A model generated the notes under the pieces. The model worked only from the letters and a program-made list of their open reading frames with translations. It did no database searches and was not told the DNA's origin. From contig OU744451.1 in the NCBI GenBank assembly GCA_916610825.1, positions 14,867,905 to 14,931,904 of the forward strand: DNA of 64,000 bases, read 5' to 3'. Position numbers and translations under genes: made by a program. Shown in pieces: positions 2,986 through 57,340 of this stretch (the stretch's first letter is position 1; each line of letters starts with the position of its first letter). This stretch comes from Haliclystus octoradiatus. Lineage: Eukaryota > Cnidaria > Staurozoa > Stauromedusae > Haliclystidae.

Positions 2986-4501
2986 ACACTTTAAATCATT
3001 TTGTGTAAAGATAATTATGCCGTTGTTTGCTTTTTTGTAATATGTAAAAACAGCTTCGGGTTTTTTTTTATCATTTTTTTTTAAATGCATACACTATCCA
3101 TCTTTCTGAATTCAACATTCTCGCAACGACTTAGAAATGAGCGTAGTGTGTTTGCTCATGGTTTGCTATATGCAATACAGGCGAGAGTAGAACATAGACA
3201 GAGAAATTTATTTTAATAACACGCAAACGGTCTCTGTAACCAAATCACCATTGTTTGACTAATATGAAACTCCTTCTCCGCGGCGCACTTTCCAAACTTC
3301 TATTACGTTTCAGGGGTATCTACAGGCCTTTGGCTAACATCGCCTCACTTAACATCACCCGGTGGAAGTTAATTCATGGTTTCCATCATAAACTTTGCCT
3401 TGATAAATCAATACCATCCGCCATCATCAAACTGTATATGTAGTTAGAGTGTTGCTCCAACGCATCTCATTATCTTCATATTTTAGACTGTCCTGGAATA
3501 TTGTCATATATTTCATATGCCAAGAAAAGTGTTGATGAACATTAGCTCTATTTGCAGTATCGTACCATTCATAGTTTCAATGTTCCGCTTTATTAATATT
3601 TTATGATGTAACTAATTCCAGCTTTCATATATCCTATCTACACTATCAGTTTTAGCCTGGATAAAAATTCTTCATGTCATGACATGAGTGTCATTTTAAG
3701 GAATGTCATTTACTCTATCAATTCTAGCCGTTTTAAAATAAAATTGCTTTTACTAAATTATAGTTTATGTCACTAACTTTAGTTTGATTGTAACAAAATG
3801 TACAATGTCTTAAATGTAAATACCCCTGACAAGATCAATGTATCATAGCAAATTATCTTTTATCCTGAACTGGGTGCAACTATATGGATGAACTACAGGC
3901 GTTTGACTAGCTCCACTACCATTTTTTTTACAGCTATTGCAATATTTTTGACTCATGCTTGAGTCTATGCTGTCATGGTAGAAACGTTTTCATTTCATTT
4001 TTGACTCAACTCTTTTGTTCTTTTGAAATAACGTTCAACATACTGCTTTGCGTGCTAGCAAAGGTCGAACAAAAAAACGATTGCGCAAGAAACACCATTT
4101 TATTGTTAAAAATACAATGGGCAAGCTGAGTGATAATTCCAAATTTTTAGCTGGATTTGACATAATTTTTTTTTCATTACCCGCAATGATGGTCGACTCG
4201 CAGCTTAGCGAGATTACAATTGCATTATTAAATGAAATGTTTTCTGATACTCCTGGATTAGTTTACATCGTGATTATCTCTTCATTGGTAGAACACATGA
4301 TTGTTTTCTTCTTTTCGTCATTTCGGTTTTTAACGTTCTGTAACATCACGATTTGAGGTTAACCTTCGAAGAGAATTTTTGTTGTGTTTTGACCATGAGA
4401 ACTTTTAAACCGACAATTCATCATTTGTTTGGGGGCGACAGTATTATATATTTATTGTTTATATTGTCTTCTAAAGTTATTTATTACATTAAACTGGTAA
4501 G
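2986..4501. other. Intergenic, no supported gene
   Basis: AT-rich sequence after copy A. A plausible polyadenylation region follows the TAA at 2979-2981. Open frames at 3255-3443 and 4048-4356 show no family motif, strong codon bias or convincing start, and I do not call them genes. Confidence 0.5.
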
Positions 4502-4534
4502 TACGGTGGCCCACAACTGCCACTTACAACAACT

Positions 4535-4770
4535 TCACTTGCCTGCCACATTAACTTCACTTGCCTGCCACATTAACTTTACTTGCCTGCCACAATAAGA
4601 AAATCATGCAGCATTAACTTTACTTGCCTGCCACAATAAGAAAATCATGCAGCATTAACTTTACTTGCCTGCCACAACAAAAACATGAATTACAACAACT
4701 TCACTTGCCTGCCGCATTAAGAACTTACATTACAACAACTTCACTTGCCTGCCACATTAAAAACTTACAT
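4535..4770 (+). repeat. Subterminal tandem repeats, left end
   Basis: A short unit containing CTTGCCTGCCACATTAACTT and variants (CACAATAAGAAAATCATGCA) is repeated about seven times. The mirror array is at 9535-9740. Arrays just inside the termini are often transposase-binding sites; that role is inferred here. Confidence 0.75.
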
Positions 4771-5632
4771 TACGGAAGTGTTGCATTTATTACGGAAGTA
4801 TATTCTTCGACGCGTCCGTTTGAAAACGAGATGCTGTGAAGAAATTTTCTATTCTGAGCCTCGGAATTCGGATAAAAAACATGGCCGCTGATTGTCTATT
4901 ATTTTAGTCGATGCAGTTTTCTGTATAAATATAAACTGTGACTGAATGTTATAACAACTCAAAGATAATCAATAACAACCAGGTAAAGCCATCATCTGTT
5001 TAATTGCCTAGGAACTTGCATGTTTTTTTGTTATAATTGCAAATCAGTGAAGACAGACAGTGAAGCATAAATTAATCAGATTATCCTGTTATCCATGTAG
5101 GCTAGACTTTGTATAATGTACATCCACCCTCTCCCTGATCAACTGCTGTTAATATGCTTGCAGATGACTATTTACATTCACCTTGATACACTAGTTTGTC
5201 ATTATTAGGGCTCCGTAGTGCAGAGAACAGTCCCATTATTTCATGATTATATATTCATAAGAAAATATATAGTACATTCACTGCCAAGTGTTACACGTTC
5301 TTGTATTGGAATAATCAATTAATTAACATGGTAATATGTATGAACTGATAATGACTAATAATTTATTATTTCAAAGTTAATAAGTGTATACAAGTCACAT
5401 GTTGCAATTATTCAATACCAATTTAATATAATTTTTTGTAAGACTTGGTAAATATAACAATCAAATCAAGCTATTCGGCACGAAGGAATCTTGTAATGGC
5501 CGAGTTTGCCAAGGGACTCATACAATTTGGGCAGCTTGATGATTTGAAACCGAAGAAAGAAAGCTTGAAATCACTGTTTGGTTTGTACTGCCAAAAGTGA
5601 ACTATCACAAATAAAAATATATAAATTATGGC

Positions 5633-6043
5633 CTACCAAATGCCTGTGCATTGAAATATGCTGTCACAAAAATATCTTTGAATTGATTGTATGTTTTTCA
5701 TATGCTGTAGTTGCAACGATATGGGCTTTTCACAGGCGCTGACCAGTGGATGGCATATTGTATGGGCCGTATCTCCTGTACAGTCATGATTGAAACTGAC
5801 CATGATGCTCTGAGATGTTTTGTTCCGTGGGACGTGCCGTGTTCCTGTCAGCCATCCCAATAGTCCTGCTGATGTGGCTTCTACAGTTACCGTTTTTTGT
5901 TCTGATTCAGAAGTGTCAACATCCATTGGCTCAGATTCTGCTGCCGGTGTGTCTTCGTAAACATATGCAACTTGTCTCGATGGTATACTGCAGACTCCTC
6001 CAATGTACGTTTTGTAGATACAGGAGAAGGAGATGAATAACAT
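5633..6043 (-). pseudogene. Transposon-borne ORF of unknown function (136 aa)
   Basis: This minus-strand ORF lies within the left arm of the foldback transposon. It encodes an acidic low-complexity stretch (EPMDVDTSESEQKT, about residues 37-50) followed by a segment containing NHDCTGDTAHTICHPLV and two further Cys residues. I do not recognise the family. A shortened version lies in the right arm on the plus strand (about 8475-8690), where the acidic part is deleted. Having the ORF inside an inverted repeat means two copies face each other. It may be the C-terminal continuation of the HECT-like protein, whose sequence adjoins it in both arms, but frame breaks prevent a firm link. Confidence 0.4.
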
Positions 6044-6399
6044 GGTTGCAGAATAGATAATATGTAAATGACAGTTGGCTCAAATTGATCGTTCCCTTTT
6101 GGGAGTAGAAACAGTGATTTGAATCTTTCTTCTTCGGTTTCAGATCATCAAGCAGCCCAAATTGCGTGAGTCCCTTGACAAACTCAGCCATCACCAGACT
6201 CCTTCGTGCCGAAAAGCTTGATTTGATCGTTTCCGCTATCGCCTTCTTATTCGATTCTGCTATGACTCATGTGTAGCCTTGCTCCATTATTTCATCCATT
6301 CTGTTCTTCATATCATCCATTATCTCACTAAGAATTTGTTTTTCTTTCTCTGCCAGGGCTTTGTCATCAACATCTGTCACTGGAAATGGCTCGAAAATA

Positions 6400-7054
6400 G
6401 CACCTCACTTAGGAGGGCGCATGAGCTCAAGCGACGGGTATATACCAGCCCTGGCCCAAACTATGCCTGGCACTGTGATGACTATGATAAATTAAAACCT
6501 TTTGGGTTTCCTATCCATGGTTGTATTGATGGCTGGAGCAGGAAGGTGTTATGGCTTAACGTCACACGATCCAACAATTCACCGCAAGTTGTAGCACAGT
6601 TTTACCTAGATGCAATCAAAAGGTTAGGTGTACTCCAATGAAGTTAACAGATTCGGGAACAGAAAATGGTATTGCTGCAAGAGTACAGTGGATCAATTTC
6701 TTTACGGATCTTGAAGAGCAAGACATATATAACAGAGCTGATGACATGCAAGCCAGCTGATACAGCCACATTGGAATACGCATTACATAAGACATTCCAA
6801 GTATCAAACTATTGCTGGCAGACCTGATGCATCGTACAATCTTCCTGAGCAATCAGGTGGACTGCCAAAGAGTATCCGAGTATCGATAACATTGCTTTTT
6901 GTAAAACCCAGGTACTGGAGCCGCTTCAAGAGGATGAATATGAAGAGTATTTTACTTATGCAATGAACGAAAGCCAGGAGAACTCTGCCAATGATTGGAA
7001 AACAGGATTGGAATTATACAAAAAGTTAATGGGATTCGCCAGAAATGACGGGTA
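6400..7054 (+). pseudogene. Integrase-core (DDE-type) transposase relic
   Basis: The best part is 6400-6641. It reads RRAHELKRRVY, then PNYAWHCDDYDKLKPFGFPI, then HGCIDGWSRKVLWL. This is the first-Asp region of an rve-superfamily integrase of the type found as stand-alone integrase-core proteins in animals and fungi. A frame change near 6640 is followed by TDSGTENGI, which holds the second catalytic Asp. The segment that should carry the catalytic Glu is missing. The last part (about 6930-7050) resembles the C-terminal tail (EEYEEYFTYAMNESQ). With the frame breaks and the lost Glu region the enzyme cannot be active. It shares the plus strand with the HECT-like ORF downstream. Confidence 0.72.
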
Positions 7055-7869
7055 GTATTCCTCATCATTCAATCAATTTATATATTGTTTAAGATTTCTA
7101 CATAAATTTGCAATAGCATTTATAGATTTATAGTCGGTATAAATTTTGCTAAAAACTGAGACTGTGAAGCAATACAATTCATATGAATATAGACTTACAA
7201 TTAATTAAAGTAATGACCACTACACATTTTCTCATCATCGGATCACCAGTCATATAAATTTAATATACAATTTAAAAAATTTAATTTTGCTACCCTCTAT
7301 AAATTCAATATTTATAACCCAAAAATGAAATATATTCAAAATATCAAGTACAGTATATACTCTATGTGTAAGACTACTGTTTCATTGTAATGTGATGTGC
7401 TTATCATATACTACGTACACGCAGAGTAACCCCCAAATGATGGCCATACTGGGACGTGTCATTTTTTTGGGTCCATTTCCAGGTGAGAGATACCACAGAC
7501 TAAATATTGCTCCCAAAATAACTTGTGGCCAAACTATTTTGTGATTAATTCTCGTAAGTATAGTTGTTGCTGTTGTATTTTATGTAAGGATCAGGAGCAG
7601 CCGGACTAGGATACAAATCCTTTGAATTCCAAAAAATATCAAAGTAGATAACTTTTCGGATAATCATACATAAAGGGCAGGTTTCAGGTTTGATTTCATC
7701 TTTCTTTTTAAAAACTTTTTGTGACTTGATAGCGAAGCTCGAAATATTTAGGGCGCGGAGCAAATTTTTCTAGTGAATGATCAGTAATTACGGTGCGTTC
7801 CCCCATGACGTGACATAACATTCAGCTCGACATTGGCAGTTTGTTTGTTTGTATGGATGTCTACAACTA

Positions 7870-8261
7870 GCCTCCTTTCCAAGAGCAAGGAATCACTGTC
7901 AAGGCTGTCAAGTATTTTGGTGAAGCTGGCATTGATCAAGGAGCCATGGGCAAAGAGTTCATGAGCTCTTGTATATTAAAAATCAGAGAAGAGCTCTTTA
8001 AAATAACATTCTTCTCGATGACATACATTCAGTAATAGAACCTATCAGACGTGTGGAGAAGTTGTGGCAGTTTGTCTTGCACATGGTGGTCCACCGGAGC
8101 AGTTCATGGACGATGTAGCATATAACTGTATTTTCGAGCCATGTCCAGTGACAGATGGTGATGACGAAGCCCTGGCAGAGAAAGAAAAACAAATTCTTAG
8201 TGAGATAATGGATGATATGAAGAACAGAATTGATGAAATAATGGAGCATAGGGAGTCATAG
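7870..8261 (+). pseudogene. HECT-like domain ORF in the transposon
   Basis: The first frame (about 7873-8031) gives FQEQGITVKAVKYFGEAGID then QGAMGKEF, matching the start of HECT-type E3 ligase domains, where a VxFxGExGxDxGGxxxEF motif is typical. After a stop and frame change, 8064-8261 continues with VAVCLAHGGPPEQFMDDVAY, like the HGG/QGG-P helix of the same domain. An acidic, Lys-rich helix (EKEKQILSEIMDDMKNRIDE) follows, ending at TAG. HECT-like domains related to G2E3 occur in repeat-associated proteins of animals. The catalytic Cys of a true HECT C-lobe is not seen. Domain assignment is by motif and moderately sure. Confidence 0.6.
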
Positions 8262-9771
8262 CAGAATCGAACAAGAAGGCGATAGCGGAAACGATTAAAT
8301 AAAGCTTTTCGGCACGAAGGTGATGGCTGAGTTTGCCAAGGGACTCACACAATGCCCAAATTGCTTGATGATCTGAAACCGAAGAAAGAAAGATTCAAAC
8401 CACTGTTTCTACTGCCAAAAAGGGAACGATCAATTTGAGCCAACTGTCATTTACATATTATCTATTCTGCAACCATGTTATTCATCTCCTTCTCCTGTAT
8501 CTACAAAACGTACATTGGAGGAGTCTGCAGTATACCATCGAGACAAGTTGCATATGTTTACGAAGACACACCCATATCGTTGAAAGCCCATATCGTTGCA
8601 ACTACAGCATATGAAAAACATACAATCAATTCAAAGATATTTTTGTGACAGCATACTTCAATGCACAGGCATTTGGTAGGCCATAATTTATATTTTTTTA
8701 TTTGTGATAGTTCACTTTTGGCAGTACAAACCAAACAGTGATTTCAAGCTTTCTTTCTTCGGTTTCAAATCATCAAGCTGCCCAAATTGTATGAGTCCAT
8801 TGGCAAACTCGGCCATTACAAGATTTCTTCGTGCCGAATAGCTTGATTTGATTGTTATATTTACCAAGTCTTACAAAAAATTATATTAAATTTGTATTGA
8901 ATAATTGCAGCAAGTGACTTGTATACACTTATTAACTTTGAAATAATAAATTATTAGTCATTATCAGTTCATACATATTACCATGTTAATTAATTGATTA
9001 TTCCAATACAAGAACGTGTAACACTTGGCAGTGAATGTACTATATATTTTCTTATGAATATATAATCATGAAATAATGGGACTGTTCTCTGCACTACGGA
9101 GCCCTAATAATGACAAACTAGTGTATCAAGGTGAATGTAAATAGTCATCTGCAAGCATATTAACAGCAGTTGATCAGGGAGAGGGTGGATGTACATTATA
9201 CAAAGTCTAGCCTACATGGATAACAGGATAATCTGATTAATTTATGCTTCACTGTCTGTCTTCACTGATTTGCAATTATAACAAAAAAAACATGCAAGTT
9301 CCTAGGCGATTAAACAGATGATGGCTTTACCTGGTTGTTATTGATTATCTTTGAGTTGTTATAACATTCAGTCACAGTTTATATTTATACAGAAAACTGC
9401 ATCGACTAAAATAATAGACAATCAGCGGCCATGTTTTTTATCCGAATTCCGAGGCTCAGAATAGAAAATTTCTTCACAGCATCTCGTTTTCAAACGGACG
9501 CGTGGAAGAATATACTTCCGTAATAAATGCAACACTTCCGTAATGTAAGTTTTTAATGTTGCAGGCAAGTGAAGTTTGTTGTAATGTAAGTTCTTAATGT
9601 GGCAGGCAAGTGAAGTTGTTGTAATTCATGTTTTTGTTGTGGCAGGCAAGTAAAGTTAATGCTGCATGATTTTCTTATTGTGGCAGGCAAGTAAAGTTAA
9701 TGTGGCAGGCAAGTGAAGTTAATGTGGCAGGCAAGTGAAGTTGTTGTAAGTGGCAGTTGTGGGCCACCGTA
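8128..9771. repeat. Right inverted arm of the 4502-9771 transposon
   Basis: Reverse complement of the left arm, ending CCACCGTA at 9771. It carries a mirror array of the subterminal repeats (9535-9740) and a shortened copy of the unknown ORF. Differences from the left arm include a deletion of the acidic segment and scattered substitutions. Confidence 0.78.
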
Positions 9772-10810
9772 GGTAAGCCAGTCGTCATGGTTTTATTTGA
9801 AATAAATTCTAAAGACTATTTAAACAAGTTTGTCCATGTTCCAAAAATTTAAAAATGCTACTCAAGAAGCTCCAGCAGAATGATTGCTTTTAAGTAAATA
9901 CACAAAAAAGATGCAAAATGTTTCCAAAAATTCTTGATAAAGTTAAAAATAGGATACCCAGAAGTTCCAAAATTTGAAATCTCATACCCAAAAAGTTTTT
10001 TCTCAGCTGGAATATGAACCCAAAATAAGTTGCACGTCCCCGTATAGCCGTCATATGGGAGTTACCCCCGGGATTGCAATTAAAATAACCATGAGTCAAA
10101 AAACAAAAATCAAGTAATTTCGAAGGAAGTCCTATGAAATTAAACTGCGGTTGCCTTTATTCTCTTTATTTTTGTGTTGAAGAAATTTCTATTGTATTGA
10201 AAATTCTACCATCACGCCTTGCTGTTCACGAATACGTTTTCCATTTTGCGAACATTCTGCTTACTTCCACGTGAAAAGGTATTTCCATATGCCCAAAAGG
10301 AGACGAGCTTCTGCCTGTCAGATCCCACATTTCTCTCAGGCTCACAAACAGAAGAAAAGATTCTCTGTACGTTTTTTATAACTTTAATGTAAATTTCATC
10401 TTTACCAAGCATCTTACTATGGATACTATCTAATTATGTATTTACTCAATAAAAAATCGTTTCAAGAAAGAGACATACGAATTATTGTTGCTAGTTGCTA
10501 CTCCAGTTTTCCACCATGGCGATCATCAGGCAAGACTGATTCCCTTATATAATGTTAAAGCTCTGATTTTGAATATATTGAGCACTACTAACGCAATTAT
10601 TTATACAAAAATGTACCGATATATTATACTGTACACAATATAGTACAAAACGTTTTGAGATTAATTACATAAACATCAGATCACTATATCTAACTATACT
10701 TTATTTGTATTCCTTTTGAACAGTACCAGTGATGGCTCTGGTGTGAACATTATTGAGTATGCATACATGAACCGAGTACTTATGATTGTGTAGCGGGCAC
10801 AACAAAACCC
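9772..10810. other. Intergenic with one dispersed repeat copy (about 9835-10080)
   Basis: The stretch at about 9835-10080 resembles 27820-28023. Both have TTCCAAAAA-type runs, a TTTGAAATCT/TCTGAAATTTT block, then CCCAAAAAG/CCCGAAAAG and a CGTCATATG near the end. Nothing else is recognised; small open frames at 9890-10099 and 10212-10412 lack support. Confidence 0.45.
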
Positions 10811-12445
10811 CCAGACTATCTTTACATATGTAGTAGACCCGACATGAAAAAAACAATGGCGTAATTTTTTTTTCGATCTGGAAATTATTTCTTGGTGAAA
10901 AATGCCTTCAAAGTGGTGCTTTGACCCAAATGTCGCTGAGGAAGGGATTGGATCTAGCTTTATGACGACAAAGTCACAAGTCGTGTGGTTTTCTAATAGA
11001 CTTTAGATCGGATTAATCACGCTATGTTACGTTTGAGATGGCGTAGCTCTGTAACGGCCATCTATTTTTCTCTCCCACAAAAATGATGTAAGGAAGAACA
11101 TATAAACTCAAGAGTAGCACAATTCCAGGTGATTTAATGATTTTAAAAGTTCACGATTTTGAAGAAAATGAAAATCAGAAAATGTTTCATTCGTAGCGCG
11201 CGTTATACAGATTATATTTTGATATATCATTCTCACACATATTTAACACATATCAAAAGATTCTCTGGTGACCACAATAGTTAGTTAAGTAGAATTTATT
11301 GTTGTAAGCATATATCTGAACTGAAAATTGAGTATTCTTTTGAGAGTCAAAATAATGTATGGTGGGAAATGCTATAAGAACACCACAACCGTCGGATTTA
11401 CAGTCCTCTTTTCACAGAAACGAAATCTGTCCATCTGATTTATCGTCTCTGCAACAAAGTATTTTGTTCAAAGTAACTTCTGCACTGTATTTCCGCATCA
11501 TATAAGCTACAGATTGTGACATGACGCTAACATGTTCTACTTTCTAGCCGAAGGAATGAATACTAGACTGGTAAAATGATTGGTAATCAGATAACGTTGA
11601 AAGAGAGGATAATAACTTATGCAATGATATACCGCAAAACCGAAAAATGATAGAATCTGCATTACTGTAGTTCTAGTGGCTCTAGTATACGGCTGTAAAC
11701 TTGCATAAGAACGTCCGAGCCCTCTATCATGTTTGTTCCATTTTCCGATATTTTATAGAATTTTACAGTGTAATCTAGTGAAGAATTTTCAATAGTTTTA
11801 TAATAATTGAATGCTTGGTGTCATGCTTGAATCATTCATTAATGATCAATACTTTGTTAGACTATTGAGTATAATATATCTATCTACAGTCGCATAAACT
11901 ATACGATTACATGGTTTAAGTTTTACTACACAAACAAACATCAATTTCAAACTTTAACTTTGAAATTTTAATTGAAAAATGTCTATTTAATAATATAATA
12001 ATACTTAAATAAATCCGAAAAAGTACAATTAATATTTTGCAGTACCAACTATCTCGAGGAAAAGTCGTCTGTGCATGCCTGTGCAAATCAAGTCAGTTTA
12101 CAATCACATTTAGATCATGAAAAGGATATCTTGTAGAAATATTTACTCAAGAACAACTTGCAGATAGAGTTAAAATAGTTATAACTTATATAGCGTAGGA
12201 TAAAGCTATTTCGAAGGGCACGTGTCTACTAATTAAGATTTGAGAGCTACTGCGGTCACACAGAATACGTAACTAATATGTGTCACTAGACTAGTCACAA
12301 AGGAACAGTCGCACCGCCTGACATTTGTGTTAATCCGCAATCTATATCAGATTCATCGCACTTAAAGCGGGAATAAACCCCCAGACTATATTATGAAGTG
12401 CCAAAAGGCTCACTACTACTTCTTTTTCGGCGCAGTACTTGTTTA

Positions 12446-13136
12446 AGCCTGGTTCCCAAATAGCAAATTTGCCGGCGATACTGTCTGCGATCGTGACGGC
12501 GGTAGGGCCGGCGGTAGGGCCGGCGGTAGGGCCGGCGGTAGAGCCTGCGATGAACCGCAGGCTACCGGGGGCATGCCAACGATGAACGCAGGCTTCTGCA
12601 GCCGCGCCGGCGACAACCTGAATAGATGAAGTTGCCCTGATCAATTGTCTCTCCCTTCTTTACAAATCATATAGTAGCATGCAACGTATTTTATCACGTT
12701 CTACTATATTTTAGTTCTATACACTTTGCTGATCACTAATTAATAATAATACAGTACATTCAGTATTTCAGCATAATTTAGTGTATTTTATCGTAATTTA
12801 ATATACAGATTAATAATACCATTATAATATTATATCATTTTAATTAAATATTGGTGGGAAACAAACCCACGTTTTTTGTCAACTGATTTCATTGGATAAT
12901 GTTGACCATGAGATGTATCGTTTAACAATAGTATCCATTAAATGCTTACGGTGGATGTCGGGGTCTTTGATAAGCTGGATTACAGCAACCGCAAAAGTTG
13001 AACCAGTTCAACTTTTGAGACAGTCGCAGCCAACTTTACGGCTTCCGGTAGAACAATAGCCTGAAAGGTGATAATTTACTGACGATTCGTCGCTGGCCCT
13101 ACCGCCGGCAAATTTGCTACATGGGAACCATGCTTT
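12446..13136. mobile_element. Nested GC-rich inverted-repeat insert in the foldback spacer
   Basis: The left end reads CCTGGTTCCCA then ATAGCAAATTTGCCGGCG. The right end is an imperfect reverse complement, CCGGCAAATTTGCTACATGG then GAACCATG. About 690 bp in all, and its first part is far richer in GC than its surroundings. No clear target duplication, so it could also be an internal domain of the larger element. Confidence 0.5.
12494..12545 (+). repeat. GC-rich 12-bp minisatellite
   Basis: The unit GGCGGTAGGGCC is repeated about four times, the last copy diverged. It sits next to the left end of the nested insert; GGCCCTACCGCCGGC near the right end (13094-13108) is the same motif inverted. 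Confidence 0.8.
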
Positions 13137-13138
13137 AG

Positions 13139-13201
13139 AGATCGCGTTACTTGTTTGCGAGATCGTGTTACTTGTTTGCGAGATCGTGTTACTTGTTTGT
13201 T
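13139..13201 (+). repeat. 21-bp tandem repeat, three copies
   Basis: Units AGATCGTGTTACTTGTTTGC plus G start at 13139, 13160 and 13181, with one substitution in the first. Confidence 0.85.
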
Positions 13202-15856
13202 TCCTAAATAGTAACTATCAATGGAATGTTCGTTCCACTAACATTACTACAGTTTTAACCTTCAACGTCCCTCATGGGAAAGGGTACTAACCCTTGATTC
13301 TTTATGGGTGTATGATGGTTGGGAGGGAGGCTGTATGTCCCGAGTGATGTTACTGTCCTAGTAATTATAACGGACTGTTTCTCTATCTGATTGTTGTATA
13401 TGACTGATTGTACAAAATTTATGTTATATAGCTACAATGAAACTATTATATAAGACACTATTCTTTGGCATCGGATTAGTGGTCATTAAGAGAGGTGATC
13501 ACTATATTGAGGTAATCATTATATCATGTTTGATTCTATCCAGTAATTGTTATCATTCAGAATTATACCTTCATGTCATTAGGGGTATTGGATATCACTG
13601 CTCCATTGATCCTGTCTCGTTTTTATGTTAGTATTTTTGTTTGCCTACTGATTTTCCTGTTAATTTCTTAGTATTATTTTTCCGATTTATTACATATGTA
13701 GTAGAACCCGACGTGAAAACAACAATGGCGAAATTTTTTTTTCGATTTGGAAATTATTTCTTGGTGAAAAGCGCCTTCAAAGTGGTCTTTTGACCCAAAT
13801 GTCGCTGAGAAAAAAGGGATTGGATCTAGCTTTATGACGACAAAGTCACAAGTTGTGCGGTTTGTCTAACAGACTCAAGAGTGGGCTGATCACGCGACAT
13901 AATCTTTGAGGTGACCTAGCTCCGAGAAGTCACGCAAAAAAAATATTTGACAAGGCTGAGCCATGAACAAACATATAAACTGGCTAATTACGTAAAAAAG
14001 ATGCAATTTGTGATTTCAGGAGCAGAATAAAATCTATTGAAACGCTCGGTCGAAATAATTTCTTGTAGCGTCATTAAGCGCGATGAATCTGATATAGATT
14101 GCGGATTAATACAAATGTCAGGCGGTGCGACTGTTCCTTTGTGACTAGTCTAGTGACACATATTAGTTACGTTTTCTGTGTGACTGCAGTACTTCTCAAA
14201 TCTTAATTAGTAGACACGTACCCTTCAAAATAGCTTGATCTTACGCTATATAAGTTTTAACTATTTTTAACTCTATGATCTGCAAGTTGTTCTTGAGTAA
14301 ACATTTCTACAAGATATCCTTTTCATGATCTAAATGTGAATGTAAACTGATTTGATTTGCACGGGCATGCACAGACGACTTTTCCTGGAGTATGGTACTG
14401 CAAAGTATTAATTGTACTGGAGTTGGTACTGCAAAGTATTAATTGTACTTTTTTCGAATTTATTTAACTATCGGTATTACTAAATTATTAGATAGACATT
14501 TTTCAACTATCATTTCAACGTTTAAGTTTGAAATTGATGTTCGTCTAGTAAAACTTAAACCATGTAATCGTATAGTTTATACGACTGTATAGATAGATAT
14601 ATTATACTCAATAGTCTAACAAAGTGTTCATCATTAATACACCAAGAATTCAATATTTAAAAAACCATTGAGAATTCTTCAGTACATTACACTATAAAAT
14701 TCTATAAAATATCGGAAAATAGTACAAACATGATAGAGGGCTCGGACGTTCTTATTCAAGTTTACAGCCGTATACTAGAGCCACTAGAACTACAGTAATG
14801 CAGATTCTATCATTTGTCAGTTTGGCGGTATATCTTCATTGCATAAATTATTATCCTCTCTATCAAAGTTATATGATTAACAAAATTAGGGTTTTGCAAT
14901 GTGAAGTCTCGTTCCTTATTCTACATACGCCACAAAATTATTTTACCAGTCTAGTATTCATTCCTTCGGCTAGAAAGTAGAACATGTTAGCACCATGTCG
15001 TCAGAATCAGGAATCGGTTGCTTTTACGAATACCATTCAAATTAATGTAAACATATTACGCTTGTACTTTACCGTTTAAATGTCATTAATAAACAAAACT
15101 ACTACTACTACTACCATGTCGTCACAATCTGTAATTTATAGGATGCAGTAATACAGTGCAGAAGTTACTTTGCACAAAATACCTTTCTACAGAGACGAGA
15201 AATCAGATGGACAGATTTCGCTTCTGTGAAAAGAGGACTATAAAACCGACGGCTATGGTGTTTCTTAATAGCGTTTCCCACCATACATTATGATTTTTAC
15301 CCTCAAAAGAACACTCCATTTTCAGTGCAGACATATGCTTACAACAATAAATTCTACTTAGCTAACTTTTGTGGTCACCAAGGAATATTTTGATATGTGT
15401 TAAATATGTGTGAGAATGAGATGTCAAAATATAATCTGTATAACGCGCGCTACAATGAAATATTTTCTGATTTTTATTTTCTTCAAATTCGTGAACTTTA
15501 AAATCATTAAATCATCTGGAATTTGGCTACTCTTGAGTTTATTTGTTCTTCCTTACCTCAGTTTTGTGGTAGAGAAAAATAGATTGCCGTTACAGAGCTA
15601 CGCCATCTCAAACGTAGCATCGCGTGATTAATCCGATCTAAAGTCTATTAGAAAAACCACACGACTTGTGACTTTGTCGTCATAAAGCTAGATCCAATCC
15701 CTTTTTTTTTCCCTCAGCGACATTTGGGCCAAAACACCACTTTGAAGGCATTTTTCACCAAGAAATAATTTCCAGATCGAAAAAAAAATTACGCCATTGT
15801 TTTTTTCACGTCGGGTTCTACTACATATGTAAAGATAGTCTGGTTTATTCCCAATT

Positions 15857-19585: not shown

Positions 19586-22500
19586 TCAGCTCTGGTCTTG
19601 TTCTTTGTGGTTTTCTCTGCTTGGCTTGTTTATTGGCCTGCTTATTGAGCTTTGTTGGATGGCCATGTCGTTTGGTGGCTCAGTCATAGTCACAGGCAGA
19701 TGAGTTGAGATGCGTCTGTTCAATAATAATTCAGCTGGACTTTGTAGAGTGTTTGTAATTGGTGTGGCACGCAAAGCTTGAAGTCCCTGTTGTATTTTGT
19801 CCCAGTCGTTTCTGTATTTCTTAACCATTGATTTAATTGTCTGTACCGTTCTTTCTGCAATGCCGTTTGATCTCGGGAAACGAGGAGACGACGTTGTATG
19901 TTTTATCCTTGATGCTTTGATAAATGCTTGGAATCTTTTTGACTTGTATTGGGATCCATTATCCGAGTAGATATGATCTGGATATCCATGTTCATTCACC
20001 AAGCGCTGGAATAAATTCAGTACTTCCTTTGATGATGTATCTTTCCTTAGTGGTTCTAGGAAGGGGTATTTGCTGTAGTGGTCTGTGACAATTAAGTAGT
20101 GATGGCCAATATATTCAAATAAATCAGAACTGATGTCTTGCCAGGGTCTTGTTGGAGTTTCATGCTGTAGTGGGGTGTGTGGTTTCGGTGAATTGCGGAA
20201 GCGGCTGCATTCTGGACACGAAGCAGCAATCGAGTGGATGTCTTTTGTTATGCCCGGCCAATATATGGTTACTGAAGCTCGTAGATTCATTTTTGTTTCT
20301 CCTTGATGAGCTTTGTGCAAGTTTTCTAGATATAACTTGCGCAACGAATTTGGTATGATAATTTGTTGGCCTCTAAGGATTAGTTTTCCATCTAGTGTGA
20401 GCCGATCACGGTCAGACCAGAACATACGTAGCTCTGTTGGAAGATGTCTTCGAAGTGTTGGCCAACCTTTTAGCACTACTTCTTTGAGTTGTTTGAACAG
20501 AAGATCCTCTTCTGTTGCGTTTTCTAGTTCATTCATCCTTGTCGGCGAGAAAGCAACCAAATGAAGAGAAATATCATTTTCAACGCTGATAGGATCTGCA
20601 TTACTTGGATCGACAGCATAGGTGGAGTTCCGAGAAAGAAAGTCAGAAATGTACATCTCTTTTCCCGGTTTGTAGATAATTTTACAATCATAATCTGCCA
20701 TGCGCAATAGCATTCTTTGTAGACGGGCAGGAGCCAAGTGGAGGTGTTTCAGAGCAATCATCTCAAGTGGCTTGTGGTCTGAATAGATAGTAAATGGCTG
20801 TCCATATACATATGTTCTGAATCTTTCACAGCCATAAACAACAGCAAGCATTTCGCGCTCTATGTTGGCATATCTTTGTTCACATTCATTTAGACTACGA
20901 GATGCAAAGTGAACCGGTTTTAGGGAGTTTGATGTGTCATCTAATTGTAGAAGTACTGCCCCAAGGGCTTTTGATGATGCGTCAACTTCAACAATGGTGG
21001 GTTTGCATGGGTTGAAATATGCTAATGAGGTGGCGTGACCAATTTGCTCCTTCAGTCTTTCAAAAGCAACAGTGTGCTCTGGCATCCAAGTGAATGATGT
21101 GTCTGCCTTCAGAAGAGATCGTAATGTAGCTGTGTTATCACTGAAATTTGGGATGAAGTTGTTGAGGTAAGTACACATGCCAAGGAAGCGTTGCAGGTCA
21201 TGAAAGTTCTTTGGAGACGGTGCTTGCTGTATGCACTCAATTTTGCTTGGGTCGGGTCGTACACCATTTGCTGAGTAGATGTTTCCGAAGAAGGTCACTT
21301 CTGGTACTTTTATACAGCATTTGCTGATATTAAAAACAATACCTTCTTCTCTTGCTCGTTTCATCAGCTTTCTGAGGTTTTCATCGTGTTCCTCTTCGGT
21401 CTTCCCATAAACTGTGATATCATCTGCAATGTTTATTACCCCTCTTAGACCAGACAGTATTCTATCCATTTCACGTTGAAAAATATCTTGTGAGAGTTTT
21501 AGTCCGAAGGGTAGGCGAAGAAATCTGTAACGTCCGAAAGGTGAGTTGAAGGTGGTAAGAAGTGATGATGAGTGATCCAGCTTGATAGACCAATAACCTG
21601 CTTTTGCATCCAGTTTCGAAAACACTTTAGAACCAGAGAGTTCATGGGTGAGTTCTTCTGTTGTGAGATTGCGATGATGCTGTCGCTTGATGGCTCTGTT
21701 GAGGTCTTTCGGATCCAGGCATATCCTTAGTTTCCCATTTGATTTACGGGCATATGCAAGGCTTGATACCCAATCGGAAGCTTCTTCTACAGCTGTGATG
21801 ACTTTCTGGCTAACCATATCGTCTAATTGTTTTAGTAATTCATCTCTGATATGAATAGGGCATTTCCTAGGGTGATGTACAACTGGTGTAATGTTGGTAT
21901 CGACCTCTATGTGGGCTTCATTGTTGAAACAGCCAAGTCCTTCAAAACGATCAGGGTATTCTTTCTGTAGGTCATCCGTATTTTGTATAGCATTTTTCTG
22001 AATGTTTTTCTTTGCAATGTCAGCATTGTTAGTGGTACTGATGCTGCAATGTAGTTCTACCAGATTGAGACGTTGGCTGTCGTGTAATCCTAGAATGATA
22101 GGACCTGGAGTATCGACAACATGAAACATTAGGTTGATTTCTTCATTCGATTTTGGGTGGAAGCAGCTGATATTGGTTGTTCCCAGGTGAGTCAGTATGG
22201 CCCCATTGTATGCTGTTATTTTTACATCTCTACTGGGTTGTAGCTTTGATTCAGGCTGTGTTGTGTTTTGGTTCATCATGCGGTATGAACGCATAGGTAA
22301 TACGTTGCCATCTGCTCCAGTATCAACTTTTACTTTCATTTTGTGAATCCCAGCCATTTGATCTAGTTTGATGGAGATATTCGTCATTGCAGTATCTGTA
22401 TGACAAGATGAGATAGCATTTATAGACAAATAATCAAATTCAAGGGTTGTGAAATTGTTTTCAATTCCGATTTCATGTGTGTCTTGCTGGTTGTGCCTCC

Positions 22501-23344
22501 TTTGACGATTTGCTGTTCTATATGACTGTTTGTCGTGATGTGGTTTGTGCTGCTGATAATGTGCAGTTTCTTTTTGTGTAGATTGACATACGCTTGAAAA
22601 GTGACCTAATTTCTGGCAATTGAAACAAGTAGCGTTACGAGCGGGGCAAATTCTGCGCTCAGGAATATGGTTTGTGCCGCAGTATCTACATTGGTGTTCT
22701 TTTTTGCTTGATTGGTGCTGTAGATTTTCCTTCTTACTGTTTCTACTTTCTGATCGGACATAGTCTATATTGCTGGTTGGTGTGCTGGTAGTTTTTTCAA
22801 ACTCTGTCATGTGTTCTTTGGACGCCTCGTATATCCGTCCCAGCTCAAGAGCATCATCTAATGTGAATGAGAGTGGTTTGTTTAGCAGCTTTGATTGTAC
22901 CTTAGGATATTTGATGCCGAGAATGAATTGCTCTAAAAGCCTGGAATTCAGCATATCCTGTGATTCAAATTTGCATTTTTGTGCTTTAAGGCGTATTTTT
23001 GATATGAATTCATCAATTGAATCATTGGCTTCTTGTTTTACAGATGATAATTGGAATCTTGCCAATCTTGGATTCGCTTTTGGCTCAAAAAATGCTTGAA
23101 ACGCAACCAGTACCTCTTTTGGGTCACCTTTTTTTGTTTCTTCCAATGGGAGAGTTTCAAAAATTTCTATTCCTCTAGCACCCATCCACAGTTGGATATA
23201 GTTCACTTGCTGGGTTTTTGTGATTTTGTGCAAAGGACCATTTAGAACAAGGTTGACATACCTTTGAAATCTTTTAAATTCTCCTGGGAGGTCATCATTC
23301 TGCCAGTCAAATTTTGGTGTTTCGATGCCAGTTAATGTCTCCAT
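19586..23344 (-). CDS. Ty3/Gypsy Gag-Pol polyprotein (1252 aa)
   Basis: Domains in order: Gag capsid-like region (about residues 1-190); zinc knuckles around 218-254 (CRYCGTNHIPERRIC and CFNCQKLGHFSSVC); aspartic protease with VDTGADGNVLP near 340; reverse transcriptase with FSKLDAKAGYWSI and IADDITVYG; RNase H with EVDASSKALGAV and YSDHKPL; integrase with an HQGE...CPECS zinc region. The integrase core has Asp in ISSDLFEY, Asp in YSDNGSQY and Glu in GIAERTV. Together these would copy the element RNA and insert the DNA. The frame ends at 19586 and the C-terminal integrase tail lies in another frame (19290-19562), pointing to a small indel near 19640-19690. The start ATG is about 80 bases inside the 5' LTR. 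Otherwise intact. Confidence 0.93.
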   Translation of the reverse strand: METLTGIETPKFDWQNDDLPGEFKRFQRYVNLVLNGPLHKITKTQQVNYIQLWMGARGIEIFETLPLEETKKGDPKEVLVAFQAFFEPKANPRLARFQLSSVKQEANDSIDEFISKIRLKAQKCKFESQDMLNSRLLEQFILGIKYPKVQSKLLNKPLSFTLDDALELGRIYEASKEHMTEFEKTTSTPTSNIDYVRSESRNSKKENLQHQSSKKEHQCRYCGTNHIPERRICPARNATCFNCQKLGHFSSVCQSTQKETAHYQQHKPHHDKQSYRTANRQRRHNQQDTHEIGIENNFTTLEFDYLSINAISSCHTDTAMTNISIKLDQMAGIHKMKVKVDTGADGNVLPMRSYRMMNQNTTQPESKLQPSRDVKITAYNGAILTHLGTTNISCFHPKSNEEINLMFHVVDTPGPIILGLHDSQRLNLVELHCSISTTNNADIAKKNIQKNAIQNTDDLQKEYPDRFEGLGCFNNEAHIEVDTNITPVVHHPRKCPIHIRDELLKQLDDMVSQKVITAVEEASDWVSSLAYARKSNGKLRICLDPKDLNRAIKRQHHRNLTTEELTHELSGSKVFSKLDAKAGYWSIKLDHSSSLLTTFNSPFGRYRFLRLPFGLKLSQDIFQREMDRILSGLRGVINIADDITVYGKTEEEHDENLRKLMKRAREEGIVFNISKCCIKVPEVTFFGNIYSANGVRPDPSKIECIQQAPSPKNFHDLQRFLGMCTYLNNFIPNFSDNTATLRSLLKADTSFTWMPEHTVAFERLKEQIGHATSLAYFNPCKPTIVEVDASSKALGAVLLQLDDTSNSLKPVHFASRSLNECEQRYANIEREMLAVVYGCERFRTYVYGQPFTIYSDHKPLEMIALKHLHLAPARLQRMLLRMADYDCKIIYKPGKEMYISDFLSRNSTYAVDPSNADPISVENDISLHLVAFSPTRMNELENATEEDLLFKQLKEVVLKGWPTLRRHLPTELRMFWSDRDRLTLDGKLILRGQQIIIPNSLRKLYLENLHKAHQGETKMNLRASVTIYWPGITKDIHSIAASCPECSRFRNSPKPHTPLQHETPTRPWQDISSDLFEYIGHHYLIVTDHYSKYPFLEPLRKDTSSKEVLNLFQRLVNEHGYPDHIYSDNGSQYKSKRFQAFIKASRIKHTTSSPRFPRSNGIAERTVQTIKSMVKKYRNDWDKIQQGLQALRATPITNTLQSPAELLLNRRISTHLPVTMTEPPNDMAIQQSSISRPINKPSRENHKEQDQS

Positions 23345-23425
23345 TATTTAAATTAATTTTATGTAGTTTTCATAGAAAATCGGAATCCAGATGTTTGTCG
23401 GTATAAAATCCTACTTCTGAAACCA

Positions 23426-28315: not shown

Positions 28316-28367
28316 TTTGGTAGCAGAGGGTGGTTTTTAATCGTATTTAGCTTTATCGTATATCGTA

Positions 28368-29815
28368 ATGGGTGGCTCGAAAAAGGCTACGCCTAAGAAA
28401 ACTAGAAAAAAAGATAAAGAAGCATCAGAACAATCGTCATCGTCTGATGGTACATTGCAAATAGTTCAACTTAGACGAATTAAAGTTGAAGCAAAGTCAA
28501 AATATGCAAAAGACAAATTACCGTTGTTGGATGGTATAGCGGAGGAGATGTCGAAAGAAGAAGTAATTAGTCGAAAGAATAAATTAATCGAAGCGGAAGA
28601 ACGCTTGAACATTGCTTTGTCGGAATTGATAGAGTTTAATACGATCGAAGGGAAGTTAGAAGAAGTAGATCATTTACTTTTAGAACTGGAGAAATTAGAA
28701 GAAGATCTTAGCGAAGCTGCAACAAAAGCAAGAGAATATTTATTGCATCCAAATCATAATCAAAATAGAGTTGAAAGACAGGCGACCATCGAAGTGTCAC
28801 CAAGTCCGTCAGGAAGAACTGCTGCGTCAGGTACAGAACAAATTGGTCATGATTTATGGAAACAATTGTCGAGAATATCGATACCGACATTCGCAGGAGA
28901 GAAAAAGTATTACCAATCGTGGAAATCAGCGTTTATGACATACGTTGATAATGCTCCGGCTACACCGGAATATAATTATTACAGTTATGTGGAAGCTTGC
29001 GCGGAGAGGCGTTCAATGCAGTTGCGGGTTTAGGACAATCAGTCGCTGCTTACGAAGCGGCAAAAGATCGTTTAGAGAGGAAATTTTCCGGTGATCGTAG
29101 GCAAATTGCAATTTACATGGAAGACATTGATCTATTTAAACCGATTCGTGTCAGGATGTAAAAAGATGTAGAAAAATTAGCTGATTTATAAGATGTTTTG
29201 GCAATCAATTTGACAGATTCTGGCAGGGAGGATGAGCTAGATGATGGCTCCCTTTACATAAAAATACAAAAGAAGTTAAATGAAAGTATGCTCACAGATT
29301 ATCGACGATGGATCTATGAAAATAATAAACAAGAAAGTGTTAATACACTACGGAAATGGATTACACGAGAAGCGGAGTTTCAAACGATGCCGTCAGAAAC
29401 AATTAAAGGTTTGAATTCAGGATTTACAAGAGACAATCAACAACAAAGAACCATGTTCGGGTCAAAAGATAAACAGAAAACGTATAATAACACATGCGTA
29501 GTATGCAGTGAAAACCATCCAATTTGGAAATGTGACGCTTTTCGCGAAATGAGCCTAGAACGACGTTGGGATGCAGCGAAAGAAAATAAATTGTGCTTTC
29601 GATGCTTAGGCGGTAACCACAGAGGAACAGACTGTCCAAGATCACGTGTATGTGATATCAATAATTGTAAAGCCGTTCACAACAGGTTGCTACATAATGA
29701 AAGACCTAGAACAGTAGAAGCTGGCTCAGTTGCCATGGAAACTACAGCAGAAACACAGAATACTGACGGTCAACCATCGACAAATCGCGCGAATGCAATA
29801 ATACAACAAAAAGGG
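28368..29815 (+). pseudogene. BEL/Pao element 1 Gag remnant
   Basis: The first frame (28368-29033) encodes a basic, Lys-rich start and coiled-coil-like helices (about residues 55-115). It then has WKQLSRISIPTFAGEKKYYQ followed by SWKSAFMTYVD, the typical BEL Gag block PxFxGdxxxWxxFxxxF. A frame change near 29000 is followed by two in-frame stops (near 29158 and 29188). The frame 29198-29830 then contains CVVCSENHPIWKC and CFRCLGGNHRGTDCPRSRVC zinc-knuckle motifs and a His-rich HNRLLH. The ATG at 28368 is 52 bases after the LTR. The protein would coat the RNA genome. Decayed but well recognisable. Confidence 0.85.
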
Positions 29816-32130
29816 CAAATTGAAACCTGAAAGATTCTCATCATGGTGTCACTTGAAACGGATAACAGCATGGGTGAGAAGGTTTACAAGAAATAGTCAA
29901 GTGAGAAGAGAAGACCGGCACAGTGGTGAGCTGACTGTCAATGAGGTGTCAGACGCCGAGAGATTTTTAATAGAAACATGTCAACAGAAGTATTTCACAG
30001 AAGAACGTAAACAACTGGCTAGATCACACGCTATTACAAAAAAGAGCGAATTATCACCATATAATCCAGTTATTGATTGCGATAATATTATCAGATCTAA
30101 TACACGTATCGAGAATGCTGATTGTTTATCGTACGATGTAAAGTATCCGATTCTACTACCGAACTGTGCATGGCTTTCTAAATTAATTGTTCGTGATATT
30201 CACGAGAAGCATGGACATGCTAGAGGTACAAATCATGTTTTGGCAGATTTATTACAATTTTATTGGGTATTACAAGCACGAGAGCTGATTAGAAAGGTTG
30301 AAAATGATTGTTGGCATTGTAAAATGAAAAAGTCGACAGCAGCAAGTCAGATTATGGCACCACTACCTGCACACCGTGTAAATTTACCGTTACGTGCTTT
30401 TGAAAAAACATCAGTCGATTATGGAGGACCTTTCTAACAATCCAAGGTCGTGGTAAGATTCGAGCAAAAAGATATTTATGTTTATTCACTTGTGTCGCTA
30501 CTCGAGTTATCCATTTGGAAATGACGTATAGCCTTAATTCGGATGCCTTTCTCAATGCTTTTTACCGTATGACTTCTCGTTGTGGTTTACCAAGTGATAT
30601 GTACTCTGATAATGGTACTAACTTTGTTGGTGGTGATAATGAATTAAAAGAATTAGTTAAATTATTAGACAAAGAAAAGATTACAAAGGATGGAGCAAAT
30701 AAAGGTATTAAATGACACTTTAATCCAGCACTCGGACCCCATTTTGATGGCTTATGTTCACGAAAGCTTAATTAAATCAGCTAAACGTGGCAGTTATGCG
30801 GTTTTAAAGAATGCCGATGTAAGAGACGAGGAATTGATGACGGCTTTTGTTGGTATTGAAGGTTTAATAAATTCACGGCCTTTAACATATATTAGTGCAA
30901 ATGCAAAAGATGATACGCCGTTGACGCCTAATCATTTTTTAATCGGTACAATGGGAGGAGAATTTGCACCAACATCAGTTGACAACAACAATTTTAATTT
31001 AAAGGGGCATTATTGACCGGCGATAATTGTTTTGAAAAAAATACATCTTTTTCAAAACCTCATTTTCAAACACCCGTTGTGACATCATCAAATCGATTTT
31101 GAATATTCATAGCGATGAAATCTGGTAACTGGAATATATCACGAGGAGTGTTTCGATGGCAGAAAAACTACAAAGAAGTGTTTTGTGATTTGCTAAGAAC
31201 GTTTACAGAAGATGTAATATGGAATAAAGCACTTTGTTGAAAGAAAGCATAATGTAGATAATTGTGCACATTTGATAATGTTTTTCTGTTTACAAATCTA
31301 TAAATGCGATATTTCTTGCAAAGAAGAAACATTTCGAATCTAGCTTCATTTTGACAACATCAAATCAACGGATTATATTTCTGTATTTCATTTACACTGA
31401 CATTCTGAACCTCGATCGAAACAAAATAACATCATATGTGATTTCTGGGTGTTTAGATATTATGGTTTGTTACAAATTGATTCAAATTGAATTTAATTAC
31501 TGACCGTTGGTTTGTTTGCGTTTCGAACCGCAATGTTTTTGGAAAGAAATATTCTGATATAATTTCAGACTTGTTCGCTTGGAATGATTATCTTGAGGAC
31601 ATATACATATGTTGTATTTGAAATCCTGATTGTCATCATCTTTATATTCAACTCATATTGCTTTGCTTGTGTATTTCAAAGTAAAAATGTTAAAATATTG
31701 GAAGTTGCGTTTCAGAAATCACGTCTCAAATATCATCAACTCACTGAAATAGCATGACGTAATAAAAAAGCTACGAGATCAGATTTCCAAAAATTCCATA
31801 CAAAGGCTGCCGGTCTTGTTTCACCCTTTAAGAAATCGTTGGCGTAGAGTGCAAGAGTTAGTGAGGCATTATTGGCGTCGATGGATGCGTGAATGGTTAC
31901 CATCGTTAGGAAAAAGAGCAAAATGGCGAAATGAAAAAAATTGATTTAAAAGTTGGTAATAATGTTATTATCGTTGATGCAAGCTCGGCACGTGGTACAT
32001 GGTCAATGGGACTCGTGGCAGAATTTTACCCAGGAAAGGACGGACATGTGAGAGTAGCCAAAGTATTAATATAGAATAAAGAATATATTCGTTCAATTAC
32101 AAAATTATGTCCGTTGGATTTAGTTATGTG
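29816..32130 (+). pseudogene. BEL/Pao element 1 integrase remnant, interrupted
   Basis: Coding switches abruptly from the Gag zinc region to the stretch before integrase (KPERFSSWCHLKRITAWVRR), so protease, RT and RNase H are absent. The H2C2-like zinc region shows HEKHGHARGTNHVLADLL and CWHCKMKK. The core has SVDYGGPF (first Asp, near 30417) and MYSDNGTNFVGG (second Asp, near 30600). The expected WER Glu region (about 30720-30760) is garbled. LINSRPLTYIS and TPNHFLIG follow. The C-terminal part resumes at 31832 after a transposon insert ([15 protein letters not shown]), ending with GKDGHVRVAKVLI. Several stops. Confidence 0.85.
31003..31827. mobile_element. 825-bp non-autonomous piggyBac-like element
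   Basis: TTAA flanks both ends (30999-31002 and 31828-31831), the target site of the piggyBac superfamily. The ends are AGGGGCATTATTGACCGGC on the left and, reverse-complemented, AGGGTGAAACAAGACCGGC on the right. Ignoring the insert and one TTAA restores a continuous integrase frame (NNNFNL then RNRWRR). No transposase inside. Related to 36033-36748. Confidence 0.85.
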
Positions 32131-40500: not shown

Positions 40501-41345
40501 AATTTGATGGATTCTTGACATGACTGTAGTGCTTTGCGGTCATTTTGAGAATATCCTGCATCACTTTCCAGCTTGCTACCTATTGAATCCATCTCCCAGA
40601 AAAATTTTGCCATTTGTGATGACAGGTCACCTTCGTCAATAGCTTGAGTTACATGTGAGTGATATGGTTCAGGAGAGTCACTTCTGTTGAGTGGTCCCAT
40701 TATTAACCAACCAAGTACAGTTTCAATTGCCCACGGTTGATTATTATTTCCTTTTTTGTGGTTCAATGGGATAAGGGCATCAGGGCAGCATGTTCCTATC
40801 AGTAGGAGAACAGAATTTCCTTTCAAATTGGGAAAACTTATGTCCTTCAAGTGGTCCCATTTAGTTACATCTATTTCCTTCACCCCTTTGCTGGTAATAT
40901 TCAGGAACTTAACTGTCCAAACAGGTTCTAATTTTATCATCTGTTGGTCTTCATTAATTTTTGAAATGTTCACATTTGTTTTCTTTGCCTTAACTTGTTG
41001 GCCGCTGTTACTGACAGTTGTTAGGGACATGTTGCCTTCGTTTCCAACTACTCCTATTTTGTTTAACACCCAGTCTTCACACAAATTTACATTGGATGCA
41101 GAGTCTAGAACTGCATAAATATCTAGACTCCCTTTTGGGCCATGTATACGTATGGGAATTGTCTGCATTAGAGTATGCGAGGTAGTTACATTTGTATTTG
41201 CTGTTGCTTGGCAACGGTTTACTGTTGGCTCGAGTGTAGGTGTGACGTCATTGTTTTCTTCTGCAACAGCGCTGGCATTTACTTGTGAGCCTGCCCCTGT
41301 TGTTCTGCAGGGCGATGTAATAAAGCGGCATGCCGTTTTTGACAA
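37545..41345 (-). pseudogene. BEL/Pao element 2 Pol (protease, RT, RNase H, integrase)
   Basis: One reading frame spans 41345 to 37545 with only two nonsense codons, a TGA at about 40425 and a TAG at about 38544. Order: A17-type aspartic protease with YAVLDSASNVNLCEDW; RT with TADIKAMFVQVRV, FGATSSPFCAS and the catalytic FYVDDLL (about 39860); RNase H with FWTDSTIVLQFL and TKQNPADDASRG; integrase zinc region HxxxxH with NCFKC; integrase core with GVDYFGPF, MHSDNGTNF and GGVWERI supplying Asp, Asp and Glu. The DUF5641-like tail has FGRIIQTFPGKDGCVRTVKV and PVTKLC. All catalytic residues remain, so the element was active not long before its stops arose. Confidence 0.9.
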
Positions 41346-48290: not shown

Positions 48291-48339
48291 TGAATACTAT
48301 ATCATTATTATATTTCTTGGTACAGAGTACAGCCTCAAG

Positions 48340-52991: not shown

Positions 52992-53100
52992 TTTTTTTTT
53001 TTTTTTTTTTATAAAGAGATAAGTTCCATAATTATGCTAATTGTATTATATTTATGACGAGAATGCTAGTGCTTTTGATATTTATAACATTATAATCTAA

Positions 53101-57279: not shown

Positions 57280-57340
57280 ATTTAAATTATCTGTGCTTAC
57301 CTATCGATTGTTTACATCGTTGATCGTTGATCGTTGATGA

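What the first reader, a model, noticed from the sequence alone, without database searches (positions are those of the whole stretch)
4502..9771. Foldback transposon combining an integrase-core transposase with a HECT-like ubiquitin-ligase-type domain
Ends, 6-bp duplication GGTAAG, subterminal tandem repeats and arms up to 1.9 kb define a complete element. The centre encodes a DDE integrase-like protein of a poorly classified type next to a HECT-like domain, and the arms contain part of the HECT-like ORF in both orientations. I know no named superfamily with this set of traits. A transposon with its own ubiquitin-ligase-like protein could act on host factors; that role is speculation. This is my best candidate for something undescribed.
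Basis: partly seen in the sequence, partly recalled or inferred. Interest (0 to 1): 0.75.

Follow-up and report, generated by a model that had tools for sequence, protein, structure and literature searches.

The report
Jumping gene carrying a ubiquitin-ligase gene
This is a broken, self-complementary copy of a cut-and-paste jumping gene of a known but little-studied kind (IS3EU-type), whose better-preserved relatives in the same genome carry, beside the enzyme that moves them, a gene resembling a protein-tagging ubiquitin ligase, a partner not seen in the papers that could be searched.

Summary
Window 4502-9771 is a 5,270-bp foldback element ending TACGGTGGCCC...GGGCCACCGTA, with a GGTAAG duplication and broken integrase and HECT-like frames. 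It is one copy of family "A": 21 of 22 two-ended copies have an exact 6-bp duplication, all different. One 19-kb copy has an open 392-aa transposase (Pfam rva_4, 2.7e-35); 17 of 22 share one deletion junction, so the window copy belongs to a non-autonomous line. Family "B" (transposase 45% identical) shares the first 12 bp, has 6-bp duplications in 3 of 4 copies and, in 4 of 4, a convergent HECT gene (Pfam 2e-8; open over 711 aa in two) with an aligned catalytic cysteine. A third locus, "D", has a HECT frame 2 kb from an rva_4 transposase. So the HECT gene belongs to these transposons. The superfamily is probably not unnamed: duplication length, TAYGG..CCRTA ends and IS3/IS481-like transposase are those published for IS3EU (PMC10045372, PMC12730594), though no tree could be made. 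New, as far as I could search, are the HECT partner and, in A, its presence in both arms. Its function is inferred only.

The parts
4496..4501 (.). left target-site duplication GGTAAG
   Evidence: sequence; 6-bp duplication in 21 of 22 copies
9772..9777 (.). right target-site duplication GGTAAG
4502..9771 (.). non-autonomous foldback transposon, IS3EU-type, family A, 5,270 bp
4502..4773 (.). left end TACGGTGGCCC... with subterminal tandem repeats (22 and 41 bp periods)
9540..9771 (.). right end ...GGGCCACCGTA with the same subterminal repeats, inverted
4502..5729 (.). outer block of left arm (pairs with 8583-9771)
   Evidence: 95.6% over 1,230 columns
5946..6399 (.). inner block of left arm (pairs with 8129-8572)
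   Evidence: 92% over 461 columns
8129..8572 (.). inner block of right arm
8583..9771 (.). outer block of right arm
5795..6399 (-). broken HECT-like gene, left arm (pieces within residues 139-375 of the C11 copy's HECT frame; the tblastn match runs on to 6473, past the junction)
   Evidence: tblastn: 69-87% identity in three pieces
7904..8579 (+). broken HECT-like gene, right arm (pieces within residues 85-327)
   Evidence: tblastn: 51-81% identity in three pieces
6377..6416 (.). 40-bp stretch over the deletion junction that joins HECT to transposase codon 120, shared by 17 of 22 copies (at most 2 mismatches)
6396..7052 (+). broken rva_4 (IS3-like) transposase, pieces of residues 120-276 and 293-392 with frameshifts

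Best explanation
The element is a non-autonomous, foldback member of a DNA-transposon family of the IS3EU type. Full-length members encode (i) an rva_4/IS3-like DDE transposase that presumably binds the subterminal repeats, cuts at TACGG..CCGTA and inserts with a 6-bp staggered cut, and (ii) a HECT-type ubiquitin-ligase-like protein. In family A the flank that holds the HECT gene came to be present on both sides of the transposase in inverted orientation, so that the long arms each carry the HECT gene. One copy then lost the transposase N-terminus and adjoining HECT sequence, and this deletion derivative spread by using transposase made elsewhere; the window copy is one of these. Shown: ends, duplications, gene content, shared junction, recurrence of the gene pair. 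Inferred: cutting chemistry, mobilisation in trans, order of events, ligase activity. I think it most likely that the HECT protein is an accessory factor that modifies host or transposon proteins to the element's benefit.
For: 6-bp duplication in 21 of 22 A copies and in 3 of 4 B copies. A and B share TACGGTGGCCCA. Transposases of A (392 aa) and B (390 aa) are 45% identical, with rva_4 hits of 2.7e-35 and 2e-30; D, D and E are aligned (A: D147, D206, E240); no HHCC motif; weak IS3 and IS481 matches, below the cut-offs. B HECT: Pfam 2e-8 over profile 18-282; phmmer to E6AP 6.3e-8 for the whole query, carried by the N-lobe start, with a C-lobe stretch that includes TNTC/TSHTC but is weak on its own (6.9 bits). 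B HECT matches A's HECT (24%, 1.9e-7) and upstream domain (38%, 2.8e-5) in the C11 element; BLAST A v B HECT 7e-9. Locus D: HECT frame (1.1e-11) and rva_4 transposase on opposite strands 2 kb apart. Shared junction in 17 of 22 copies.
Against: No IS3EU protein was available for a tree. HECT identity between A and B (22-24% in local alignments, 24 and 28%) is far below that of their transposases (45%), so the gene may have been acquired twice or evolves fast. Gene order differs: convergent in B and D, outward-reading in both arms of A. dN/dS of A's HECT frames is only 0.50-0.91 (three pairs), weak evidence of selection. Of 49 rva_4 clusters 48, including the two best-scoring, have no Pfam HECT hit within 20 kb, though that Pfam search also missed the HECT genes of A and B. 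No copy of family A that I read holds an unbroken HECT gene together with an open transposase, and of the 4 B copies none has both frames open and both ends.
Confidence: 0.85

Rival explanations
1. One reading: a transposon superfamily with no name yet.
For: The transposase matches the IS3 and IS481 models only weakly, below their cut-offs, and no IS3EU sequence was at hand for comparison.
Against: TA..TA ends, usual 6-bp duplications and an IS3/IS481-related transposase without HHCC are the published IS3EU traits (PMC10045372); fungal TET-bearing IS3EU elements end TAYGG..CCRTA (PMC12730594), as here.
Confidence: 0.07
2. The HECT frames belong to a separate element or host gene that inserted into the transposon once.
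For: Low HECT identity and different gene order between A and B; nested elements do occur (hAT frame in L020, LTR element in the C11 copy).
Against: 4 of 4 B loci hold the HECT gene, inside matching ends and duplications in the 3 where both ends were read; 19 of 22 A copies have HECT matches in both orientations beyond the short 218-260 piece; a third locus has the pair (chance expectation for such a pair within 5 kb about 0.04).
Confidence: 0.05
3. The HECT-like protein has no ligase activity and serves as a binding or structural partner of the transposase.
For: A's HECT is not found by Pfam, so the domain has diverged; accessory proteins of transposons often bind DNA or transposase (recalled).
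Against: A cysteine aligns with the catalytic one in A (C4 frame), B and D.
Confidence: 0.3

Closest known systems
IS3EU superfamily (with GingerRoot)
   Same: TA..TA ends, TAYGG..CCRTA, TIRs over 30 bp, 6-bp duplications, IS3/IS481-related DDE transposase without HHCC (passages of PMC10045372 and PMC12730594)
   Different: HECT gene beside the transposase; kilobase foldback arms carrying it in family A. Neither paper's main text holds the word HECT; the passages that I saw name TET/JBP and alpha-kinase genes in fungal IS3EU.
Fungal TET-bearing IS3EU elements
   Same: transposase plus accessory enzyme genes inside one IS3EU element; transposase opposed in direction to a further gene (alpha-kinase)
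   Different: accessory enzymes are dioxygenase and kinase, not ubiquitin ligase; fungi, not this genome
HECT E3 ligases (E6AP, HUWE1, RSP5)
   Same: N-lobe start and C-lobe with aligned catalytic cysteine in B
   Different: encoded by a transposon; possible zinc-ribbon N-terminus (Zn_Ribbon_1 only 0.05, below cut-off); family A not recognised by Pfam
Foldback-type elements in general
   Same: long inverted arms with subterminal tandem repeats
   Different: foldback is a shape, not a family (recalled); relative B has short terminal repeats only

Membership tests
IS3EU | 6-bp target-site duplication (usual) | tested here: met
   21 of 22 A copies; 3 of 4 B copies, the fourth lacks its right end
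IS3EU | TA..TA ends; TAYGG..CCRTA | tested here: met
   TACGG..CCGTA in A and B; 2 of 44 A ends (right ends of L023 and L033) read ..CCATCGTA
IS3EU | terminal inverted repeats over 30 bp (stated for fungal TET-bearing members) | tested here: met
   for A; in B the last 38 bp read are the inverse of the first 38 read
IS3EU | DDE transposase related to IS3/IS481, no HHCC zinc domain | tested here: met
   rva_4; IS3 5e-8 for B and IS481 2.6e-6 for A, both below the curated cut-offs; motif search
IS3EU | clusters with Repbase IS3EU transposases in a tree | not testable with these tools
   no Repbase sequences; the GingerRoot paper is not held
HECT E3 ligase | HECT domain over the Pfam cut-off | tested here: met
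   B 34.7 bits v 23.9, D 45.4 bits; family A itself not met, linked by homology to B
HECT E3 ligase | catalytic cysteine in the C-lobe | tested here: met
   B TNTC v E6AP TSHTC, a weak stretch on its own; a Cys aligns in A (C4 frame) and D
HECT E3 ligase | ubiquitin transfer activity | not testable with these tools
   needs a biochemical assay
GingerRoot | 6-bp duplications, mostly TA..TA ends | tested here: inconclusive
   met, but these do not separate it from IS3EU (PMC10045372)

The most novel reading that the evidence does not exclude
A clade of IS3EU transposons has long kept its own catalytically competent HECT ubiquitin ligase, used to remove or retag host factors that restrain transposition or to control transposase level; in family A the gene was doubled by incorporation into both inverted arms.
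Probability: 0.35. Interest if true: 0.68.

Novelty: new variant of a known kind. Interest (0 to 1): 0.5.

Why it matters
Fungal IS3EU elements can carry TET/JBP enzymes that probably counter host silencing (PMC12730594 abstract). A ubiquitin-ligase gene kept beside the transposase in at least two, probably three, lineages of one genome would be another kind of accessory enzyme in this superfamily, acting on protein and not on DNA, and it can be tested directly. It may also mean that some predicted HECT genes in animal genomes are transposon genes.

Tried and rejected
Pfam on window frames and on A's best frame for HECT: no hit. phmmer of A's HECT against the PDB: best 0.29, to E6AP, suggestive only. 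PF00632 over the genome misses the HECT genes of A and B, so its count is a lower bound. Arm homogenisation (a 700-bp stretch of the outer arm): of 17 copies with both arms measured, both arms are nearest to, or tied nearest with, each other in 7, one arm only in 1, and in 9 (the window included) both are nearer to arms of other copies; steady arm-to-arm conversion is therefore not supported. dN/dS is not decisive, and that script stopped on its last line, so B HECT was not measured. Relatives in viral contigs: none. In prokaryote assemblies: 5 contigs, some by my reading stray eukaryote DNA (three from one sponge-symbiont bin), with no HECT match by tblastn. Four of the 27 fetched loci (L026, L030, L034, L035) gave no two-ended unit and were left out of the counts. 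Literature: searches brought up no title or start of abstract about a HECT-bearing transposon; one search found 35 papers with IS3EU, 20 listed; only PMC10045372 and PMC12730594 were looked into, by passages; the other listed papers were not opened. Structure prediction was never accepted, so no fold comparison was made. The host species was not identified.
Full report
OBSERVATION. Window 4502-9771 is bounded by GGTAAG on both sides, begins TACGGTGGCCC and ends with its inverse. The arms run inward to 6399 and from 8129; two gapped blocks align at 95.6% and 92%, their longest ungapped stretches at 96-99%, with a 216-bp piece (5730-5945) present on the left only. Both ends carry tandem repeats of 22 and 41 bp.

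FAMILY A. The window lies in a 262-Mb genome of 33 contigs, presumably an animal (BEL/Pao-like elements, recalled as confined to animals and labelled here by eye); the species was not identified. The first 199 bp has 74 matches, a lower bound; the 40 best are separate ends. I fetched 27 loci and, with the window copy, extracted 22 units with both ends, 2.9 to 19.2 kb long; four loci gave none. 21 of 22 have an exact 6-bp duplication, never longer, 21 distinct, with A/T in 41 of 42 letters at the two middle positions; L027 has none. These are separate insertions of one family.

GENES IN FAMILY A. In the window copy the transposase frame is broken and lacks residues 1-119, 277-292 and part of 194-276. 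One copy, C11:3813906-3833055 (L024+L025), has an open 392-aa frame with rva_4 at 2.7e-35. Its arms are some 5 kb each apart from a 6-7 kb insertion and carry, outward-reading, a HECT-like frame with upstream frames. In the right arm the HECT frame ends where the inserted LTR element appears to begin (RVT_1 1.6e-10); in the left arm it has an internal loss and two stops. Seventeen of 22 copies share, with at most 2 mismatches in 40, the junction at which HECT sequence meets transposase codon 120, so they most simply descend from one deletion event. L019 and L020 have no transposase match; L020 contains a hAT frame.

FAMILY B. A genome search with A's transposase gave, besides family A and more distant hits, four loci at 45% identity over residues 22-386. 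Comparison of two of them put the left end at TACGGTGGCCCAGAGG, the same first 12 bp as in A. The C2:22.76-Mb copy is 7,786 bp long with CTAAAT on both sides; two further copies have ATTAAC and GGTAAA on both sides; in the C10 copy homology stops before the right end. B carries a 390-aa transposase frame (no stop in two loci, one stop each in two) and, facing it, a 711-aa HECT protein (2e-8). The latter was found beside the transposase in 4 of 4 loci: open in two, with one stop in one, and in pieces in one. No one of the four has both frames open and both ends. Phmmer aligns its start with E6AP (whole query 6.3e-8) and, weakly, its C-lobe with the catalytic cysteine region.

LINK BETWEEN A AND B. 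The B HECT protein finds A's C11 HECT frame (24%, 1.9e-7) and A's upstream frame (38%, 2.8e-5) in the same order; BLAST of B against the C4 frame of A gives 7e-9. In the alignment of that C4 frame a cysteine stands at the catalytic position. HECT similarity is well below transposase similarity, which leaves open whether the gene was inherited or acquired twice.

THIRD LOCUS. Genome-wide Pfam searches give 57 HECT hits in 19 clusters and 62 rva_4 hits in 49 clusters. The other 48 rva_4 clusters have no Pfam HECT hit within 20 kb, but A and B loci that do carry a HECT gene are among them, so the figure says little.

CLASSIFICATION. PMC10045372 (abstract and passages seen) says that complete IS3EU families always have TA..TA ends, usually 6-bp duplications, and no HHCC. 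PMC12730594 (passages seen) gives TAYGG..CCRTA, TIRs over 30 bp and 6-bp duplications for fungal members, and reports TET/JBP and alpha-kinase genes beside the transposase. A and B meet these traits, with 2 of 44 A ends deviating (..CCATCGTA). The transposase matches IS3 and IS481 models below their cut-offs and has an aligned DDE triad. Membership is therefore very probable but not proved by a tree.

MECHANISM. Shown: 6-bp duplications at many separate insertions, and a deletion line lacking a complete transposase. Inferred: the staggered cut, movement of the deletion line by transposase from full-length copies, and that the HECT gene helps the element. The arms are not steadily homogenised: 7 of 17 copies have mutually nearest arms (ties included), 1 in part, 9 not. 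The foldback shape therefore looks like a rearrangement passed on, with occasional conversion.

NOVELTY. I found no paper on a transposon with a HECT gene in searches of an open-licence library (listings; two papers looked into by passages); Repbase itself and most subscription papers were not searchable. I rate it a new variant of a known kind.

Noticed in passing
window 10837-15832: A second large foldback arrangement directly downstream: many inverted blocks of 63-196 nt, 82-97% complementary.
   Followed up: no
window 46106-48291: Another inverted-repeat unit, arms of 668 nt at 97% with 850 nt between.
   Followed up: no
window 19586-23347: 1,253-aa open frame that by eye is a Ty3/Gypsy-like gag-pol; not tested by profile.
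   Followed up: no
window 28341-30437 and 37545-42670: Frames that by eye resemble BEL/Pao retrotransposon proteins; not tested by profile.
   Followed up: no
window 53784-57300: Frames that by eye resemble a LINE (zinc knuckle, endonuclease, reverse transcriptase); not tested.
   Followed up: no
window 52520-53057: Long simple repeat that reads ILFYF... in all three forward frames.
   Followed up: no
L017 301-4986 and 5087 onward: Two family A copies lie only 100 bp apart, each with its own 6-bp duplication.
   Followed up: partly
L030 near 301: A left end preceded directly by another partial TACGGTGGCCCA, as if ends were stacked.
   Followed up: no
L024+L025 (C11:3813906-3833055): Nested LTR element (by eye BEL/Pao-like; RVT_1 1.6e-10) with a 1,786-aa open frame, apparently inside the right-arm HECT frame.
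   Followed up: partly
L048, L050, L051: Contigs filed under a Cycloclasticus symbiont of a sponge encode proteins like the transposases here and, in L050, frames that by eye are a retroelement: probably host DNA in a bacterial bin.
   Followed up: partly
L036 4701-5144 and L041 downstream of the B copy: Very similar unknown frames flank the C10 family B copy on both sides in inverted orientation.
   Followed up: no
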